Translations under genes and position numbers: made by a program
Assembly: GCA_016935655.1 (NCBI GenBank)
Contig: JAFGQM010000027.1
Span: forward strand, 1 to 8,740
Direction of reading: 5' to 3'
Source: Candidatus Altarchaeota archaeon
GTDB taxonomy: Archaea; Altiarchaeota; Altiarchaeia; JAFGQM01
DNA length: 8,740 nt
Shown: positions 4,541-8,740 of the stretch, one piece after another
Layout: every line of letters starts with the position of its first letter
How positions within the stretch are numbered: the first letter of the stretch is position 1
The notes under the pieces: generated by a model
What the model was told of the DNA's origin: nothing
Database searches by the model: none
The model's input: only the letters and a program-made list of their open reading frames with translations

Positions 4541-4553
4541 AAAATGGTATCTT

Positions 4554-4577
4554 GAGTCTTCTGTCGACAGTCCTGTT
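4554..4577 (+). repeat. Dispersed repeat copy 1 (TCTTCTGTCnACAG...TCCTGTT)
   Basis: GAGTCTTCTGTCGACAG followed by TCCTGTT matches 7554-7585, where one base is inserted after GAG, the palindromic core CTGTCGACAG (4561-4570) has one change, and 7 extra bases (TTTCCAG) separate the halves. Both copies sit in fic-adjacent spacers, so this looks like a shared ancestral element rather than coding sequence. Confidence 0.55.
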
Positions 4578-4615: not shown

Positions 4616-4678
4616 TTCTTATTTACTGAAGTAAATGAGTGTTTTTATAGCCTTATTTACTTACGGAAATAAGGCTAT
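4616..4678. repeat. AT-rich inverted repeats at the 3' end of the first fic gene
   Basis: ATTTACT and AGTAAAT form a 7-bp inverted repeat at 4621-4636 with GA between. Next to it ATAGCCTTATTT (4647-4658) and its perfect reverse complement (4667-4678) form a 12-bp stem with an 8-base loop. CTTATTTACT occurs in both (4618-4627 and 4652-4661). The longer hairpin lies 12 bases past the minus-strand fic stop, so it would sit in that transcript's 3' end and may aid termination or stability. No U-run follows on that strand. Confidence 0.55.
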
Positions 4679-5865: not shown

Positions 5866-5914
5866 GTTATTTAAGAATTAAGGTCTTTTCTTTAATAAGA
5901 AAATTCTTATTAAA
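5866..5914 (-). promoter_or_regulatory. Promoter and palindromic operator candidate of the first fic gene
   Basis: Bases 5891-5914 form a 24-base inverted repeat: TTTAATAAGAA, two central A, TTCTTATTAAA. It lies 53-76 bases upstream of the minus-strand ATG at 5838. Between it and the gene, TTCTTAAATAAC (5866-5877, minus strand) is the best TATA candidate and would give a start near 5840-5850, a very short leader. The palindrome just upstream of TATA suits a regulator such as the Fic winged helix. Confidence 0.45.
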
Positions 5915-5959
5915 ATTAGTTTGAATAGTAACATACGGGAAGCGGGGCATTTAATGCAA

Positions 5960-5996
5960 TACCCTCTTTTTCTGAGTTTTTGTAAAAAAGAGGGTA
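5960..5996. repeat. 12-bp stem hairpin with T/A-rich arms
   Basis: TACCCTCTTTTT (5960-5971) and its perfect reverse complement (5985-5996) enclose a 13-base loop. It lies in the gene-free stretch 5839-6158 between the first fic gene and tRNA-Leu. That stretch otherwise holds the fic promoter, this hairpin, a tandem ACTCTAG pair near 6013-6026, twin-hairpin element A and the tRNA trailer; I see no coding sequence in it. Confidence 0.6.
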
Positions 5997-6027
5997 AAAA
6001 TCAGCACAGTGGACTCTAGACTCTAGA

Positions 6028-6082
6028 CACGAGGTTCAGCTTTGCTGAACCTGTGCCCAAGTTCACAAAGTGAACTTCGGGC
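6028..6082. repeat. Twin-hairpin element, copy A
   Basis: Hairpin 1: CAC, bulged G, AGGTTCAGC (6032-6040), loop TTT, GCTGAACCT (6044-6052), GTG. Hairpin 2: GCCC (6055-6058), AAGTTCAC (6059-6066), loop AAA, GTGAACTT (6070-6077), bulged C (6078), GGGC (6079-6082). The two lower stems share G6055. Copies B (7502-7550) and C (8682-8737) have the same layout with different stem sequences. A GACTCTAGACTCT stretch lies just upstream, echoed before copy C as GACTCGAGACTCT. Confidence 0.8.
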
Positions 6083-6123
6083 AGCAGACTTAAAAGGAGT
6101 GCTTTCCGCTAACTCTCCAAGCC

Positions 6124-6158
6124 CTTCATTGCCGAAACTGGGCAATATAACAATGAAG
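6124..6158 (-). other. tRNA-Leu 3' trailer with two alternative hairpins
   Basis: On the minus strand the bases directly after the tRNA discriminator read CTTCATTG (6158-6151) and pair perfectly with CAATGAAG (6131-6124). An alternative inner stem, ATTGCC (6146-6141) with GGCAAT (6133-6128), has a 7-base loop; the two overlap, so only one can form at a time. It may help 3' processing or termination of the tRNA transcript. Confidence 0.45.
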
Positions 6159-6243
6159 TGCGGGGGACGAGATTCGAACTCGCGCAGGCCTAAGCCACAA
6201 GGTCCTAAGCCTTGCCCGTTTGACCAGACTCCGGCACCCCCGC
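6159..6243 (-). tRNA. tRNA-Leu (anticodon UAG)
   Basis: This is an 85-base type II tRNA on the minus strand. Acceptor GCGGGGG pairs with CCCCCGC, and the discriminator is A. The D stem is CCG/CGG with GGTCAAA in the loop. The anticodon stem CAAGG/CCTTG encloses the loop CTTAGGA, giving anticodon TAG at 6207-6205 with G37. A long variable arm (GGC-TTAG-GCC) marks Leu. The T arm is GCGAG-TTCGAAT-CTCGT. It decodes CUA and, by wobble, other CUN codons. CCA is not encoded (CTTC follows). There is no intron. A TATA-like AAATAAA at about 6296-6290 on the minus strand may be its promoter. Confidence 0.95.
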
Positions 6244-6320
6244 ATAAAATGGGTAAGCGACTGTAGTGTAACTCGCCAGTATGCTGCGGGTTTATTTGAA
6301 ATTCCAGAAATAAAAGGGTC

Positions 6321-6710
6321 CTACTGCGACTTCGGGGCTTCCTTCTTCGCTTCCATCGGCTTTTCCTCGGGTCTTTTCTGGGCGCGCTCATTCCGCTCCA
6401 TCTCGCCCACCTTCTGCATCACCTTGTCCATCTCGCGCTTGTCCTTAGCCCTCTGGCGCATCCTCTTATCCTTCTCGGTAGTGTGGATGCCATCCTTCAC
6501 GAGATGACGGTGCTTGGCGCAGGATATGCAGGCATAGCCCTTGCTGCTGGACATGGATACGACCTCGGCGAGCTCGTAAACATCAGAGGACAACCTCCCC
6601 CCTACGTTCACTTCCACGGCCTTGTGCTTAGGCACATTCCTTCCGCAAAATGTGCATTTGATGGCTGAATCACGGCCCCTGCTGGACCACCATTTGCCCC
6701 ATTGACCCAT
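6321..6710 (-). CDS. rps26e: Small ribosomal subunit protein S26e-like, with charged C-terminal extension
   Basis: This 129-residue basic protein matches S26e in its first 75 residues: IKCTFCGRNVPKHKA (17-31) and YACISCAKHRHLVK (59-72). The two CxxC pairs (Cys19, 22, 61, 64) would bind one zinc, as in the family. S26e sits near the mRNA exit channel of archaeal and eukaryotic 30S/40S subunits. Residues 76-129 (rich in Lys, Arg, Glu, Met) are an extra charged helical tail beyond the S26e core. The ATG at 6710 is preceded by GGGTGAT at three bases' distance, an excellent archaeal Shine-Dalgarno. A TTTTTTAAACC box near 6769-6759 is a plausible TATA. U-rich sequence after the stop (minus strand, about 6318-6308) could terminate it. 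Distribution of S26e argues against a classical euryarchaeote. Confidence 0.78.
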   Translation of the reverse strand: MGQWGKWWSSRGRDSAIKCTFCGRNVPKHKAVEVNVGGRLSSDVYELAEVVSMSSSKGYACISCAKHRHLVKDGIHTTEKDKRMRQRAKDKREMDKVMQKVGEMERNERAQKRPEEKPMEAKKEAPKSQ

Positions 6711-6785
6711 ACAATCACCCTGTAATATAAGAGAAAAAAGCGTTATTTTAGCTGCTTGGGTTTAAAAAAGGGCTTTAGGCAGCTA
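6711..6785 (-). promoter_or_regulatory. rps26e promoter with inverted repeat around the TATA-like box
   Basis: Minus-strand TTTTTTAAACC near 6769-6759 lies about 50 bases ahead of the ATG, followed by GGGTGAT just before the start. TAGCTGC (6749-6755) and GCAGCTA (6779-6785) form a 7-bp inverted repeat enclosing this box. The T-run in it may also stop vapC transcripts arriving from upstream. Confidence 0.35.
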
Positions 6786-6795
6786 CCTCGGGAGC

Positions 6796-7167
6796 TTATC
6801 CCAAGAATCTGACGTTGTCGTAGCCCTCGAAGTGCTTATCGCCTGTCAACAACTGCGTCTTGTTCCTCATGGCTGTCGCATATACTACCGCATCGACCAA
6901 GTAGAGGCCTTCGTTCTTGAATTCCGCTGCCTTTAACGCTATGTCAGAGTCCAAGGGCATAAGGAGGCTTCTAGCTAATATTACATTAATGGCTTTCTCC
7001 TGATCGCTCTTGGATATCCCCTCCTTAAGGAGCTTGGCCTTGAACTCGGATAAGCATATGGTTGGCGTGAAGATTATGCCGTCGCTGTCGATGTATTGCT
7101 TTGCCTCTTCCCCTTTCTCGCTCCCTTGGAAATACTCCACCCATGCGTATGTATCGAATGTTATCAT
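6796..7167 (-). CDS. vapC: VapC-type PIN-domain ribonuclease toxin
   Basis: The start chosen is ATG 7167, one base after the antitoxin stop at 7169; an upstream in-frame ATG at 7197 would overlap the antitoxin gene and add 10 residues. The product has 123 residues, typical for VapC. It opens with the PIN strand MITFDTYAWVEYFQ (Asp5). The other conserved acids are Glu41 (LSEFKAK), Asp92 (YLVDAVVYATA) and Asp110 (LLTGDKHF). These would coordinate Mg2+ for endoribonuclease activity, usually against tRNA or rRNA in this family. The organisation, antitoxin first and toxin directly behind, is the standard vapBC operon. The neighbouring tRNA and ribosomal gene have no clear functional tie. The target RNA cannot be read from the sequence. 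Confidence 0.9.
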   Translation of the reverse strand: MITFDTYAWVEYFQGSEKGEEAKQYIDSDGIIFTPTICLSEFKAKLLKEGISKSDQEKAINVILARSLLMPLDSDIALKAAEFKNEGLYLVDAVVYATAMRNKTQLLTGDKHFEGYDNVRFLG

Positions 7168-7168
7168 G

Positions 7169-7360
7169 CTAGAACCTGTCCTCGTGTTCTCTCTCAAAAC
7201 CCTTCAGTTTCCCGCTGAGCATGCCGAAACCCTCCTTCTCAGGTTTCACAAGACCCTCGTAAAGGAACCTGTTTATGGTAGTGGAGAGCTCTCTCTTCCC
7301 AAACCTTGAGACTATGAGATGATAGACATCATCCCTCAGCAAAACAGTGGTTTTGACCAT
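7169..7360 (-). CDS. vapB: VapB-type antitoxin
   Basis: This is a 63-residue protein, MVKTTVLLRDDVYHLIVSRF at its start. The strand-helix-helix pattern (KTTVLLRDDVYHLIVSRFG then STTINRFLYEGL) suggests a ribbon-helix-helix-like DNA-binding half, and the charged tail (GKLKGFEREHEDRF) would wrap the toxin. ATGs at 7372 and 7366 are also in frame, but GGTGAT at 7370-7365 is a Shine-Dalgarno placed four bases before ATG 7360, so 7360 is preferred. It should neutralise the PIN toxin encoded one base downstream and, with it, repress the operon through the palindrome overlapping the leader. Confidence 0.85.
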   Translation of the reverse strand: MVKTTVLLRDDVYHLIVSRFGKRELSTTINRFLYEGLVKPEKEGFGMLSGKLKGFEREHEDRF

Positions 7361-7364
7361 AGAC

Positions 7365-7396
7365 ATCACCATATATGGTTTAATTTAAAAAGCAAT
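7365..7396 (-). promoter_or_regulatory. vapBC promoter, operator palindrome and Shine-Dalgarno
   Basis: ACCATATATGGT at 7368-7379 is a perfect 12-bp palindrome. Its last bases overlap GGTGAT (7370-7365 on the minus strand), the ribosome site for vapB. Upstream, CTTTTTAAATTAAA (minus strand, 7394-7381) is a good TATA candidate, putting the start near or inside the palindrome. Binding there would block both the promoter and the ribosome site, as expected for an autoregulated toxin-antitoxin pair. Confidence 0.5.
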
Positions 7397-7430
7397 CTTT
7401 AAAAACCCACTATTGTGCCGAAGGGTTAAA

Positions 7431-7498
7431 CGCCGAGGTTGAACCGACTCCGTCGGTAGCCCTCGCCGCGGGTGCTGTGAGAGTGAGCGCCGAGGTTG
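7431..7498. repeat. 11-bp direct repeat with a 3-base-loop hairpin between
   Basis: CGCCGAGGTTG occurs at 7431-7441 and 7488-7498. Right after the first copy, ACCGAC (7443-7448), loop TCC and GTCGGT (7452-7457) form a hairpin like those of the twin-hairpin family. The gene-free stretch 7380-7681 consists of this block, element B, a dispersed repeat copy and the second fic promoter; I see no coding sequence in it. Confidence 0.5.
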
Positions 7499-7501
7499 GG
7501 A

Positions 7502-7550
7502 CACGAGACTCGCTTGCGAGTCTGTGCACAGGGACCGAAGGTCCCTTGTG
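7502..7550. repeat. Twin-hairpin element, copy B
   Basis: Hairpin 1: CAC (7502-7504), bulged G, AGACTCGC (7506-7513), loop TT, GCGAGTCT (7516-7523), GTG. Hairpin 2: GCAC (7526-7529), A, GGGACC (7531-7536), loop GAA, GGTCCC (7540-7545), T, bulged T (7547), GTG (7548-7550). It has the same layout as copies A and C, including the shared G of the GTGC linker (7524-7527). Confidence 0.78.
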
Positions 7551-7553
7551 TTT

Positions 7554-7585
7554 GAGGTCTTCTGTCCACAGTTTCCAGTCCTGTT
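7554..7585 (+). repeat. Dispersed repeat copy 2
   Basis: GAGGTCTTCTGTCCACAG, then TTTCCAG, then TCCTGTT. It corresponds to 4554-4577 except for one inserted G, a G-to-C change in the palindromic core and the 7-base insert, which repeats the CAG before it. It follows element B directly. Confidence 0.55.
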
Positions 7586-7633
7586 CCGGTTATATTGCTG
7601 ACACTGGAATAAAAGCGGGGTTACGCTACCAGC

Positions 7634-7674
7634 TAACTCCACAAAATTTATTATTTATATACTTTGTGGAGTTA
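7634..7674 (+). promoter_or_regulatory. Second fic promoter: TATA box enclosed by a 12-bp inverted repeat
   Basis: TAACTCCACAAA (7634-7645) and its perfect reverse complement (7663-7674) enclose 17 bases that contain ATTTATATAC (7653-7662), a strong archaeal TATA box. Transcription would begin about 25 bases on, at or next to ATG 7682, giving a leaderless mRNA; no Shine-Dalgarno is present. A regulator bound to the arms would cover the TATA box and block initiation. Confidence 0.6.
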
Positions 7675-7681
7675 ACTAAAC

Positions 7682-8623
7682 ATGGTTCATTTCTCTGAGA
7701 AGGAGATAAAGGGTAAGAAATACCTCTATGCACTTCAGTCAGTCAGACTTAGCGATGGCACTGTGGCAAAGATAACAAAACGCATTGACAGACCAATTCT
7801 GACGCCCGAATTACAACAGTATTTTGATGGGAAAAGGAAGGACTTACTCAAAAAAGACGCTCTAAAGAAATATAGGACGGACTCCGTCTTCACGAAACAG
7901 CAGATAGAGAAGGTTGAGGAAACCAAGGTGGACTACAAGCAAATCCTCAAGAAGCTCACGAAGGCTCAGAAGAAGGACCTCTTCGACAGATTCACGGCCA
8001 ACTTCACGTACGAATCCAACGCCATAGAAGGCAACTCGCTTACACTCAAGGATGTTGCAATAATCCTTTTTGAAAACAAAGTTGTCGAAGGGAAGGATCT
8101 AAGAGAGATTTATGAGACCAGGAACTCTCGAAGGGTTGTCGACCTGATACTCGCCAACAGGTTCAAGGTGACGGAAAGGGACATAATCCAGATGCACAAG
8201 ATGCTTGTGGACGATATGGATGTGGCTACCGGGTACAAGAAAATCCCAAACTATCTGGTCGGCAGGCGGGTGAAAACGACCCCGCCGGAGCTTGTCGAGA
8301 AAGAGATGCAAGATCTCTTACACTGGTATAAGAGCGGGGAAAAAATGCACCCCATCAAAAAGGCTGCCCTTTTCCACGGAAGGTTTGAGAGGATACACCC
8401 CTTTGATGATGGGAACGGCAGGGTCGGCAGGTTTCTGATAAATGTGATTCTGATAAACGCAGGCTACGCGCCGGTTATAATACGGAAAAGCCAGAGAATC
8501 GCTTACCTGAAAGCCCTTGAAGCTTTCGACAACGGGTATACTGCGAGGCTAGAACGGTTTATGCTGTCAAAATACAAGAACACCTTCAAGAACTTCTTCC
8601 AAGTATATTTGAAATACATTTAA
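7682..8623 (+). CDS. Class II Fic protein without winged helix (predicted AMPylase)
   Basis: This is a 313-residue protein. Residues 1-100 are highly charged, lysine-rich and mostly helical. The inhibitory motif SNAIEG (112-117) fits [S/T]xxxE[G/N] and precedes the Fic core, so it is class II. The catalytic motif HPFDDGNGRVGR (239-250) is complete with His239. Activity as an AMP-transferase on protein hydroxyls, held in check by Glu116, is expected. Unlike the other Fic here it ends about 60 residues after the motif region, with no DNA-binding domain. The two proteins share little outside the motifs, so they are not a recent duplication. It stands alone behind a TATA-overlapping inverted repeat and is flanked by twin-hairpin elements on both sides. 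Physiological target unknown; defence, stress signalling or a toxin-like role are all open. Confidence 0.92.
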   Translation: MVHFSEKEIKGKKYLYALQSVRLSDGTVAKITKRIDRPILTPELQQYFDGKRKDLLKKDALKKYRTDSVFTKQQIEKVEETKVDYKQILKKLTKAQKKDLFDRFTANFTYESNAIEGNSLTLKDVAIILFENKVVEGKDLREIYETRNSRRVVDLILANRFKVTERDIIQMHKMLVDDMDVATGYKKIPNYLVGRRVKTTPPELVEKEMQDLLHWYKSGEKMHPIKKAALFHGRFERIHPFDDGNGRVGRFLINVILINAGYAPVIIRKSQRIAYLKALEAFDNGYTARLERFMLSKYKNTFKNFFQVYLKYI

Positions 8624-8681
8624 CAAGACTGGAGACCCTATTAGCCCCCTCCAAGACCCGAGACTATCGACTCGAGACTCT

Positions 8682-8737
8682 CACGCGAGGTTCACGGAGT
8701 GAACCTGTGCACAATCTCACCGGAGGTGAGATTCGTG
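8682..8737. repeat. Twin-hairpin element, copy C
   Basis: Hairpin 1: CAC, GCG, AGGTTCAC (8688-8695), loop GGA, GTGAACCT (8699-8706), GTG. Hairpin 2: GCAC (8709-8712), AATCTCACC (8713-8721), loop GGA, GGTGAGATT (8725-8733), bulged C (8734), GTGC (8735-8738). An outer CACG (8682-8685)/CGTG (8734-8737) pairing around both hairpins is also possible. It starts 58 bases after the second fic stop and reaches the window edge, so flanking sequence on the right is missing. Confidence 0.8.
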
Positions 8738-8740
8738 CCG

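What the first reader, a model, noticed from the sequence alone, without database searches (positions are those of the whole stretch)
6028..8737. Family of three twin-hairpin elements with covarying stems around two fic genes
Copies at 6028-6082, 7502-7550 and 8682-8737 share one architecture. Each has a CAC/GTG lower stem with 5' bulge, an 8-9 bp upper stem with a 2-3 base loop, a GTGC linker shared with a second 6-9 bp hairpin, and a 3' single-pyrimidine bulge before GGGC, GTG or GTGC. Upper stems differ in sequence but always pair, and the lower stem changes from GCCC/GGGC to GCAC/GTGC, a compensatory change. Conserved structure with free sequence points to selection on folding, as RNA or single-stranded DNA, not to a simple duplicated repeat. 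I know of no named archaeal element with this form. It may be a REP-like or transposase-recognised unit, or a small structured RNA.
Basis: partly seen in the sequence, partly recalled or inferred. Interest (0 to 1): 0.8.

Follow-up and report, generated by a model that had tools for sequence, protein, structure and literature searches.

The report
Jumping twin-hairpin DNA in archaea
Short stretches of archaeal DNA, about 55 letters long, that fold into two back-to-back hairpins look like copies of a mobile element that slips cleanly into new places, sometimes into the tips or joints of other hairpins, and whose hairpin sequence is free to change as long as it still folds.

Summary
The three copies (6028-6081, 7502-7550, 8684-8737) share one form: xyC-bulge-[stem-loop]-Gy'x' followed by its mirror image. 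A covariance model of these three finds it in 4 of 29 genomes of the phylum of an Altiarchaeota-named genome; a refined model finds 13 of 29 (4 of them supplied training copies), some with dozens of copies. In one genome, copies of an IS200-like transposon with and without these elements show clean insertions: no target duplication above 1 bp at three of four sites. One element carries a second twin at its centre; in another genome 13 of 31 chains sit inside another hairpin. Neighbouring units run + then - (50 against 1). Pairs change almost only by Watson-Crick swaps (10 G.T in 1,736 cells), pointing to DNA, not RNA. The refined model rings in 60 of 279 Nanoarchaeota-phylum genomes, 0 of 276 of a bacterial phylum, 1 of 274 of another archaeal phylum. 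Y1/RAYT-type transposases do not track with it. Best reading: an archaeal double-hairpin mobile element, like fungal mitochondrial DHEs, probably moving as single-stranded or dumbbell DNA. No empty site was seen for the window's own copies.

The parts
6028..6081 (.). Copy A: twin-hairpin element. + unit 6028-6055 (tag CACG, stem AGGTTCAGC/GCTGAACCT, loop ttt, GTG); - unit 6056-6081 (CCC, stem AAGTTCAC/GTGAACTT, loop aaa, bulge C, GGG); flanks A^C
   Evidence: (70.7 bits on +, 61.3 on -)
7502..7550 (.). Copy B: twin-hairpin element. + unit 7502-7526 (CACG, stem AGACTCGC/GCGAGTCT, loop tt, GTG); - unit 7527-7550 (CAC, stem AGGGACC/GGTCCCT, loop gaa, bulge T, GTG); flanks A^T
   Evidence: (60.9 bits on +, 44.1 on -)
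8684..8737 (.). Copy C: twin-hairpin element. + unit 8684-8709 (CGCG, stem AGGTTCAC/GTGAACCT, loop gga, GTG); - unit 8710-8737 (CAC, stem AATCTCACC/GGTGAGATT, loop gga, bulge C, GTG). Ends 3 nt before the end of the contig
   Evidence: 67.4 bits on +, 46.6 on -

Best explanation
The three copies belong to a large family of small (about 50-57 bp) non-autonomous mobile elements of archaea, made of two inverted hairpin units: xyC-B-[stem-loop]-Gy'x' | abC-[stem-loop]-B'-Gb'a', where B is a one-base bulge at the outer side and the stems vary widely in sequence. SHOWN (mainly in two relatives, G011 and G017): dispersal, copy number, self-symmetry, the + then - grammar, insertion of whole elements at defined boundaries into an IS200-like transposon and inside other hairpins, nesting at the centre of another twin, and covariation that is almost only Watson-Crick. 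INFERRED: the element moves as a single unit in a single-stranded or closed-dumbbell form (the two hairpins abut, so its two ends and its centre meet at one junction) and is joined into single-stranded targets such as hairpin loops and cruciform junctions, which would give insertions without target duplication. In that folded state each arm is the template for the other, so mismatches are repaired to perfect pairs and stems drift freely while staying palindromic. The enzyme is not known; the data speak against Y1/RAYT-type transposases as the general driver. The host role is probably none (selfish DNA).
For: Model R1 from the three window copies finds 4 of 29 Altiarchaeota-phylum genomes at E<=0.01, best 7e-8. 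R2 finds 13 of 29; 4 of these 13 supplied training copies, 9 did not; up to 134 matches in one genome (both strands counted, so about half as many sites; at most 150 candidates scored per genome). Structure-only scan without sequence: '+-' pairs 7 (G017), 4 (G010), 1 (G022), these three on contigs chosen for R1 hits, and 6 in ten systematically placed 20-kb stretches of G011; Markov resamplings 0 in each; 0 in 181 kb of nine other archaeal loci. Grammar: +- 34, ++ 9, -- 11, -+ 1 in G017; +- 16, ++ 8, -- 14, -+ 0 in G011; 50:1, p 4.6e-14. Empty sites: occupied versus uninterrupted copies of one IS200-like element, joined flanks without a gap 78/80, 71/80, 65/80, 69/80 at four sites. Nesting: the 56-bp element of L219 carries in L306, L220 and L305 a 52-bp twin at its centre GTA^TCC. 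In G017, 13 of 31 chains sit inside a flanking helix of 8 bp or more (5.5% for mismatched flanks). Base before the element is never C: 0 of 110 flank positions. 83 non-redundant elements, 1,736 cells: 1,707 Watson-Crick, 10 G.T, 3 A.C, 16 other. 60 of 279 Nanoarchaeota-phylum genomes ring at E<=1e-4 against 0 of 276 and 1 of 274 in two other phyla, and most of the loci printed have the same architecture with varied tags.
Against: The insertion evidence comes from two genomes; flanking hairpins are rare in G011 (1 of 15 chains), G010/G022 (0 of 5) and the window (0 of 2). At the CCA^AGG site only L219 has well-kept flanks on both sides; L306, L220 and L305 keep the left (37/40) but not the right (22/40). 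At one IS site a 4-bp, and at the nested site a 3-bp, target duplication cannot be told from a tag match. Chains such as ++- and +-- (2 of 31 in G017, 5 of 15 in G011) are not explained by twin-into-twin insertion alone. Two covariation measures do not beat shuffles in A6: pairs with a two-sided change (19 against 19.0) and further pair types (60 against 61.8); in A4 the latter (35 against 32.4) does not either. High pairing rates are partly ascertained by structure-based search. Homology between Altiarchaeota and Nanoarchaeota copies rests on architecture and weak stem resemblance. No mobilising enzyme was identified; the dumbbell/single-strand step is inference.
Confidence: 0.8

Rival explanations
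1. A REP/BIME-like or PATE-like element mobilised in trans by a Y1 (HUH) single-strand transposase of the IS200/IS605 or RAYT kind.
For: Inverted hairpin pairs with a bulge, single-strand logic and insertion without long target duplication fit such transposases (recalled knowledge of IS200/IS605). Y1_Tnp genes occur in G011 and G017.
Against: Y1_Tnp is found in 21 of 60 element-positive and 67 of 219 element-negative Nanoarchaeota-phylum genomes (Fisher p 0.53) and in 3 of 13 against 2 of 16 in the Altiarchaeota phylum (p 0.63). G046 (one 1.30-Mb contig) has 11 matches and no Y1; G010, G022 and G023 show none either, though such genomes may be incomplete. The intact Y1 element of G011 has end hairpins of its own, and copies of it are themselves targets. 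Tags are mostly not GTAG or CGTC and three of their four bases pair.
Confidence: 0.12
2. A structured RNA (terminator, processing signal, small RNA or antitoxin RNA near fic), kept by selection on RNA folding.
For: Strong covariation; depleted in long ORFs: midpoints in ORFs of 200 aa or more in 9 of 34 (G017, coding 68%) and 5 of 16 (G011, coding 73%), half of these within the first tenth of the ORF.
Against: The element is its own reverse complement in form, has only 10 G.T among 1,736 pair cells, occurs inserted in an IS200-like element, and forms nested arrays with several tag families. No Rfam family reaches its gathering score on it.
Confidence: 0.05
3. Palindromes made in place by replication template switching (quasi-palindrome correction), not by transposition; arrays grow by slippage.
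For: Would explain perfect arms, en bloc changes and the scarcity of G.T without selection (inference).
Against: Whole elements with fixed boundaries appear at sites that are uninterrupted in another IS copy, and inside other hairpins; identical elements recur in one genome; the +/- grammar and shared tags within a genome need a common source. It may still be the process that keeps arms paired.
Confidence: 0.03

Closest known systems
Double-hairpin elements (DHE) of fungal mitochondrial DNA (Allomyces; DHE-like in Candida)
   Same: Two adjacent stem-loops, dispersed, regarded as mobile, reported lack of flanking duplications (passages in PMC2800124 and PMC4618339; the Allomyces paper itself was not held and not read)
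   Different: Archaeal contigs instead of mitochondria; fixed bulge-and-tag grammar with a + then - rule; many tag families and widely varying stems (whether DHE stems vary likewise I recall but did not read); no evidence of common descent
Short palindromic repeats of green-algal organelles (Volvox carteri)
   Different: The passages describe palindromes that share more than 50% identity with one another; no paired inverted units with outer bulges in the passages read
REP / BIME elements and RAYTs
   Same: Small palindromes, often as dimers in opposite orientation, hypothesised to be mobile (abstract and section 14 of PMC3733652)
   Different: REPs carry an unpaired GTAG or CGTC tag; here tags vary and mostly pair, the linker is usually a flush 6 nt, and Y1 genes do not track
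IS200/IS605 family and its non-autonomous derivatives (PATE; recalled)
   Same: End hairpins with bulges, single-strand transposition, no target duplication (recalled)
   Different: Ends here are mirror images, there is no fixed target tetranucleotide, and Y1 genes do not track

Membership tests
Double-hairpin element (DHE) | Two adjacent stem-loops forming one unit | tested here: met
Double-hairpin element (DHE) | Mobile, without flanking duplication | tested here: met
   in relatives only: (no duplication above 1 bp at 3 of 4 sites; 4-bp ambiguity at the fourth, 3-bp at the nested site); not testable for the window copies
Double-hairpin element (DHE) | Located in mitochondrial DNA of fungi or relatives | tested here: not met
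   archaeal contigs
REP/BIME | Unpaired terminal tag GTAG or CGTC | tested here: not met
   oriented tags CCCG 107 of 122 in G017; CACG, TCCG, TCCT, TCCA lead in G011; three of the four tag bases pair
REP/BIME | Associated Y1 transposase (RAYT) in the genome | tested here: not met
   no association; no Y1 found in G046, G010, G022, G023; not testable for the window's own genome
IS200/IS605 non-autonomous derivative (PATE) | Ends matching a resident Y1 element | tested here: not met
   end hairpins of the intact G011 Y1 element differ from the twin element; hairpins near the G017 Y1 gene likewise; other genomes not examined
MITE of a DD(E/D) transposon | Terminal inverted repeats plus target duplication of fixed length | tested here: not met
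   tags are only 4 nt; no duplication above 1 bp at 3 of 4 sites
Known structured RNA family | Match to an Rfam model | tested here: not met
   at gathering thresholds only a tRNA in the window
Rickettsia palindromic element | In-frame insertion in protein genes (recalled) | tested here: inconclusive
   some midpoints fall in crude ORF calls, half of them near the 5' end; frames not examined

The most novel reading that the evidence does not exclude
A class of mobile DNA with no gene and no dedicated transposase, spread across Altiarchaeota and Nanoarchaeota-type archaea, that propagates as a closed hairpin-capped dumbbell or single-stranded circle of about 50 nt and is built by host repair enzymes into single-stranded hairpin loops and cruciform junctions. 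Because each arm is templated by the other, only the folded form is inherited exactly, so the 'genome' of the element is its structure rather than its sequence.
Probability: 0.3. Interest if true: 0.93.

Novelty: new variant of a known kind. Interest (0 to 1): 0.8.

Why it matters
Mobile elements are usually recognised by sequence; this one is conserved mostly in its fold, so sequence-based repeat finders would tend to miss or split it. It would be, as far as my six library searches show, the first cellular counterpart to the puzzling double-hairpin elements of mitochondria. It may explain hairpin arrays and assembly breaks in DPANN-type genomes, and it makes a concrete question testable: can DNA move without a transposase of its own, by folding and being joined into other folds? 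It also warns that perfect covariation does not by itself prove a functional RNA.

Tried and rejected
Fic-linked regulatory element or cassette: set aside, since copies in relatives lie in varied contexts; no direct fic-association test was made. Viral origin: a degenerate pattern in viral contigs gave 81 stretches, of which R1 scored four at E 0.083 and none better; two narrower patterns gave 4 and 0 stretches, and R2 found nothing up to E 1 in the 4. Plasmids: no match for window 5900-6160. R1 on 25 of the 80 UPF0280 loci: none up to E 1. Y1/RAYT co-occurrence: no association. Rad50 zinc hook as a marker of the Mre11-Rad50 hairpin nuclease: seen in 13 of 60 element-positive and 89 of 219 element-negative Nanoarchaeota-phylum genomes (p 0.007) and in 2 of 13 against 7 of 16 in the Altiarchaeota phylum (p 0.13). 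Element-positive genomes are larger (median 1.15 Mb against 0.9 Mb for hook-positive ones), about half of the hook hits lie below the family cut-off, and clades were not controlled, so this is a lead, not evidence. The structure-only scan misses twins whose centre is part of a longer palindrome: in G150 it finds 2 twins, while three further R2 copies that I read by eye are proper twins. MAFFT misplaced bases of copy B in A3; R1 was built on it all the same. Intact counterparts of outer hairpins were found for 6 of 7 stem patterns tried and not for the seventh (GAATTCGCC). No structure prediction was run.
Full report
What is in the window. The window is a complete 8,740-nt metagenome contig (the protein database gives 8,740 as the longest contig of the window's own protein). 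No genome is held for it. Its genes are CBS, NIL/4Fe-4S, UPF0280 (so named by sources of its homologues), a KefB-like antiporter, DUF2207_C, a SoFic-like Fic protein (5838-4690, -), tRNA-Leu (-), an S26e-like ribosomal protein (-), a PIN-domain protein with a small upstream partner (-) and a second Fic protein (7682-8623, +). Among the 120 best homologues listed, the closest with an organism name are Altiarchaeales at 47-49% identity; an unnamed JGI contig has 81%. Among 29 genomes of the phylum of an Altiarchaeota-named genome the best match is 52%. I therefore take the source to be an Altiarchaeota-like archaeon, without certainty.

The three copies. Each is a pair of hairpins with a flush 6-nt linker, and the second hairpin is the mirror image of the first: xyC-B-[stem]-Gy'x' | abC-[stem]-B'-Gb'a'. 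A covariance model built on the + strand (R1) therefore matches each copy on both strands; the next best place in the window has 8.1 bits. Adjacent perfect stem-loops: 4 pairs observed against a mean of 0.11 in 200 Markov resamplings; one of the four (7318-7355) is not a copy.

The family. R1 finds the architecture in 4 of 29 Altiarchaeota-phylum genomes, with the lower stem changed from CAC/GTG to CCC/GGG in G017. A refined model R2 (26 matches from the window, G017, G010, G022 and G011, both strands of several copies included) finds 13 of 29 genomes: G017 134, G011 86, G022 19, G010 17, G023 15, G018 6 and seven others with 1 to 3 matches. Nine of the 13 gave no training copy. Matches count both strands, and at most 150 candidates per genome were scored. 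A scanner that uses no sequence at all (perfect stem of 6 or more, loop 2-6, lower stem of 3 or more beyond a one-base bulge) finds '+-' pairs: window 2, G017 7, G010 4, G022 1 (contigs chosen for R1 hits), two chosen G011 stretches 1, ten systematic 20-kb stretches of G011 6; Markov resamplings gave none in any of these. In 181 kb of nine other archaeal loci it finds none, and neighbouring hairpins there are at the chance level (7 against 5.5). Copy C is missed by this strict typing because of its G.T lower pair. First contigs of 20 phylum members gave '+-' pairs in G017 and one, with a 4-nt linker, in G018 (four of these contigs read as N only).

Grammar. In 269 kb of G017 (26 contigs, 25 of them chosen for R1 or R2 hits) and 640 kb of G011 (32 stretches, 13 placed around known matches; so these are not density estimates), neighbouring units 3-8 nt apart are +- 34 and 16, ++ 9 and 8, -- 11 and 14, -+ 1 and 0. 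Chains that contain +- read + to the power n then - to the power m: in G017 23 +-, 4 ++--, 2 +--, 1 +++--, 1 ++---; in G011 9 +-, 3 ++-, 2 +--, 1 ++--. The G017 linker is GGGCCC in 33 of 34 twins and the tag CCCG in 107 of 122 typed units; G011 uses CACG, TCCG, TCCT, TCCA and others. Stems recur with different partners: in G017 24 distinct stems in 25 distinct pairs among 34 twins.

Mobility. G011 carries several copies of one IS200-like element (Y1_Tnp). Against the copy in L201, other copies carry whole twin elements at defined sites. With the element cut at its tags, the joined 40+40-nt flanks align to the L201 copy without a gap at four sites: 78/80 (CCA^AGG, L219), 71/80 (GAA^TAC, L220), 65/80 (GTT^TCG, L220 and L291; 63/80 in L224), 69/80 (ACA^TTG, L220). 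At CCA^AGG three further copies (L306, L220, L305) keep the left flank (37/40) but not the right (22/40). Boundaries are ambiguous by 1 bp at three sites and by 4 bp at GAA^TAC, where the tag resembles the flank. The 56-bp element of L219 contains in L306, L220 and L305 a further 52-bp twin at its centre GTA^TCC (3-bp ambiguity). I read this as the making of a four-unit array, and it would explain the grammar: growth by insertion at the +|- junction preserves the order. It does not by itself explain ++- and +--. L201 itself holds a different hairpin pair that L306 and L288 lack. The compared copies are those found in the fetched stretches and loci, not all copies of the genome.

Where it inserts. 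In G017, 13 of 31 chains are enclosed by a helix of at least 8 bp formed by their flanks, against 5.5% for mismatched flanks. Uninterrupted hairpins of such outer kinds exist for 6 of 7 stem patterns tried, mostly with 3-nt loops, and the leftover loop bases around the inserted chains are often three in all (read by eye). Four further chains interrupt another hairpin family at GAG^C on one strand or the other (L276:8333, L282:3533, L278:349, L280:223, read by eye); intact hairpins of that kind are. In G011 only 1 of 15, in G010/G022 0 of 5 and in the window 0 of 2 chains have flanking helices of 8 bp. The base before the element, read on either strand, is A 61, T 20, G 29, C 0 of 110 (sum over the four groups); ten more positions in two Nanoarchaeota-phylum genomes show A 6, T 4.

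DNA, not RNA. In 139 distinct rows (150 of 203 matches were aligned, both strands included) 98.7% of 2,907 cells pair, 1,051 cells have a two-sided change (300.7 in shuffles), the covariation score is 0.922 against 0.204, and slides of 1-3 columns bring it to 0.158 or less. Two coarser measures (pairs with any two-sided change, further pair types) do not exceed shuffles in this large set. Counting 83 non-redundant elements, 1,707 of 1,736 cells are Watson-Crick, 10 G.T, 3 A.C, 16 other. Structural RNAs tolerate far more G.U (recalled). Search by structure favours paired copies, so the absolute percentage is inflated; the scarcity of G.T beside about a thousand two-sided changes is the telling part. 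Stems seem to be exchanged or corrected as wholes (inference).

Distribution. R2 at E<=1e-4 rings in 60 of 279 genomes of the phylum of a Nanoarchaeota-named genome, 0 of 276 of the phylum of a Deltaproteobacteria-named genome and 1 of 274 of the phylum of a Methanolobus genome, with stricter filters and 20-21 candidates scored per genome. The tool warns that an empty answer alone shows little; the same settings gave the 60 positives. A separate search of 12 genomes reached through loci rang in 3 at E<=0.001 (G003, G042 and a Methanobacteriaceae-named one). Most of the loci printed show the same form, with tags such as CACG, CACT, CACA, CCCA, CCCT, CCCG, CGCT, CGCA, TGCT; some second units lack the perfect lower stem. 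In ten systematic stretches of G046 the scan finds 2 '+-' pairs and no '-+'.

Driver. Y1_Tnp is in 88 of 279 Nanoarchaeota-phylum genomes without association to the element (21 of 60 against 67 of 219, p 0.53) and in 5 of 29 Altiarchaeota-phylum genomes (3 of 13 against 2 of 16, p 0.63). G046, one contig of 1.30 Mb, has 11 matches and no Y1.

Mechanism. When folded, the two hairpins stack end to end and the element's 5' end, 3' end and centre come together; sealing the ends would give a closed dumbbell whose two central junctions have the same duplex sequence. Insertion of such a single-stranded unit into a single-stranded loop or junction would leave no target duplication and would favour hairpin tips and twin centres, as seen in G017 and at one G011 site. 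In the dumbbell a mutation in one arm is a mismatch in a duplex and can be repaired either way, which gives two-sided changes with few G.T intermediates. The fold, the sites and the covariation are shown; the dumbbell, the single-stranded target and the enzymes are inferred.

Literature. Six searches of the held library listed no paper that I could recognise as describing such elements in archaea (up to 15 rows each, titles and starts of abstracts only). A 2026 survey of inverted repeats mentions archaea 26 times and DPANN, Nanoarchaeota or Altiarchaeota not at all in its main text (PMC13155455, passages). Nearest analogues: fungal mitochondrial DHEs (passages in PMC2800124 and PMC4618339; [quoted passage not shown] By form and behaviour this works like a DHE; by location and descent it is not shown to be one, and it fails the tag and RAYT tests for REPs.

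Verdict. I rate it a new variant of a known kind (double-hairpin elements) rather than categorically new, because the organellar precedent exists.

Noticed in passing
L192, L193, L195 (G017), e.g. L192:320-575: A second hairpin family in G017: stems TAYGA...TCRTA, TTCGA...TCGAA or TCCGA...TCGGA joined by short linkers (gc, tta, at), in a cluster of up to ten hairpins.
   Followed up: partly
L191:1298-1347, L194:2558-2603 (G017), L231:16493-16536 (G015): A third twin-hairpin family seen in G017 and G015: ATGTGG[CNGAG..]ACATATGT or similar[..]CCACAT; in G017 it is a target of the CCCG elements at GAG^C, and one such pair sits in the centre of a CCCG twin (L237:18149-18254).
   Followed up: partly
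G011, L201:251-1300 and copies in L219, L220, L224, L288, L291, L300, L305, L306: An IS200-like Y1 element whose copies are interrupted by hairpin insertions at about six positions; a natural recorder of insertion history.
   Followed up: partly
window 8682-8740: The contig ends 3 nt after copy C, and some G017 contigs begin or end close to copies (L192:28, L195:3542 of 3553, L278:20); these repeats may break short-read assemblies.
   Followed up: no
window 4618-4673, 5891-5914, 7631-7677: AT-rich palindromes next to both fic genes (CTTATTTACT..; TTTAATAAGAAAATTCTTATTAAA; AGCTAACTCCACAAA..TTTGTGGAGTTAACT just upstream of fic2), possible operator sites.
   Followed up: no
window 4550-4577 and 7558-7585: A 28-nt repeat (71% identity; TCTTCTGTCCACAG..CAGTCCTGTT in the second copy) beyond the 3' end of the first fic gene (which is on the minus strand) and just after copy B.
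   Followed up: no
   Followed up: partly
G150, L347, L348, L350: Three copies of one twin element lie within a longer shared context (CTCAAG<element>AACCAYTGG), so the twin there seems to travel inside a larger dispersed repeat.
   Followed up: no
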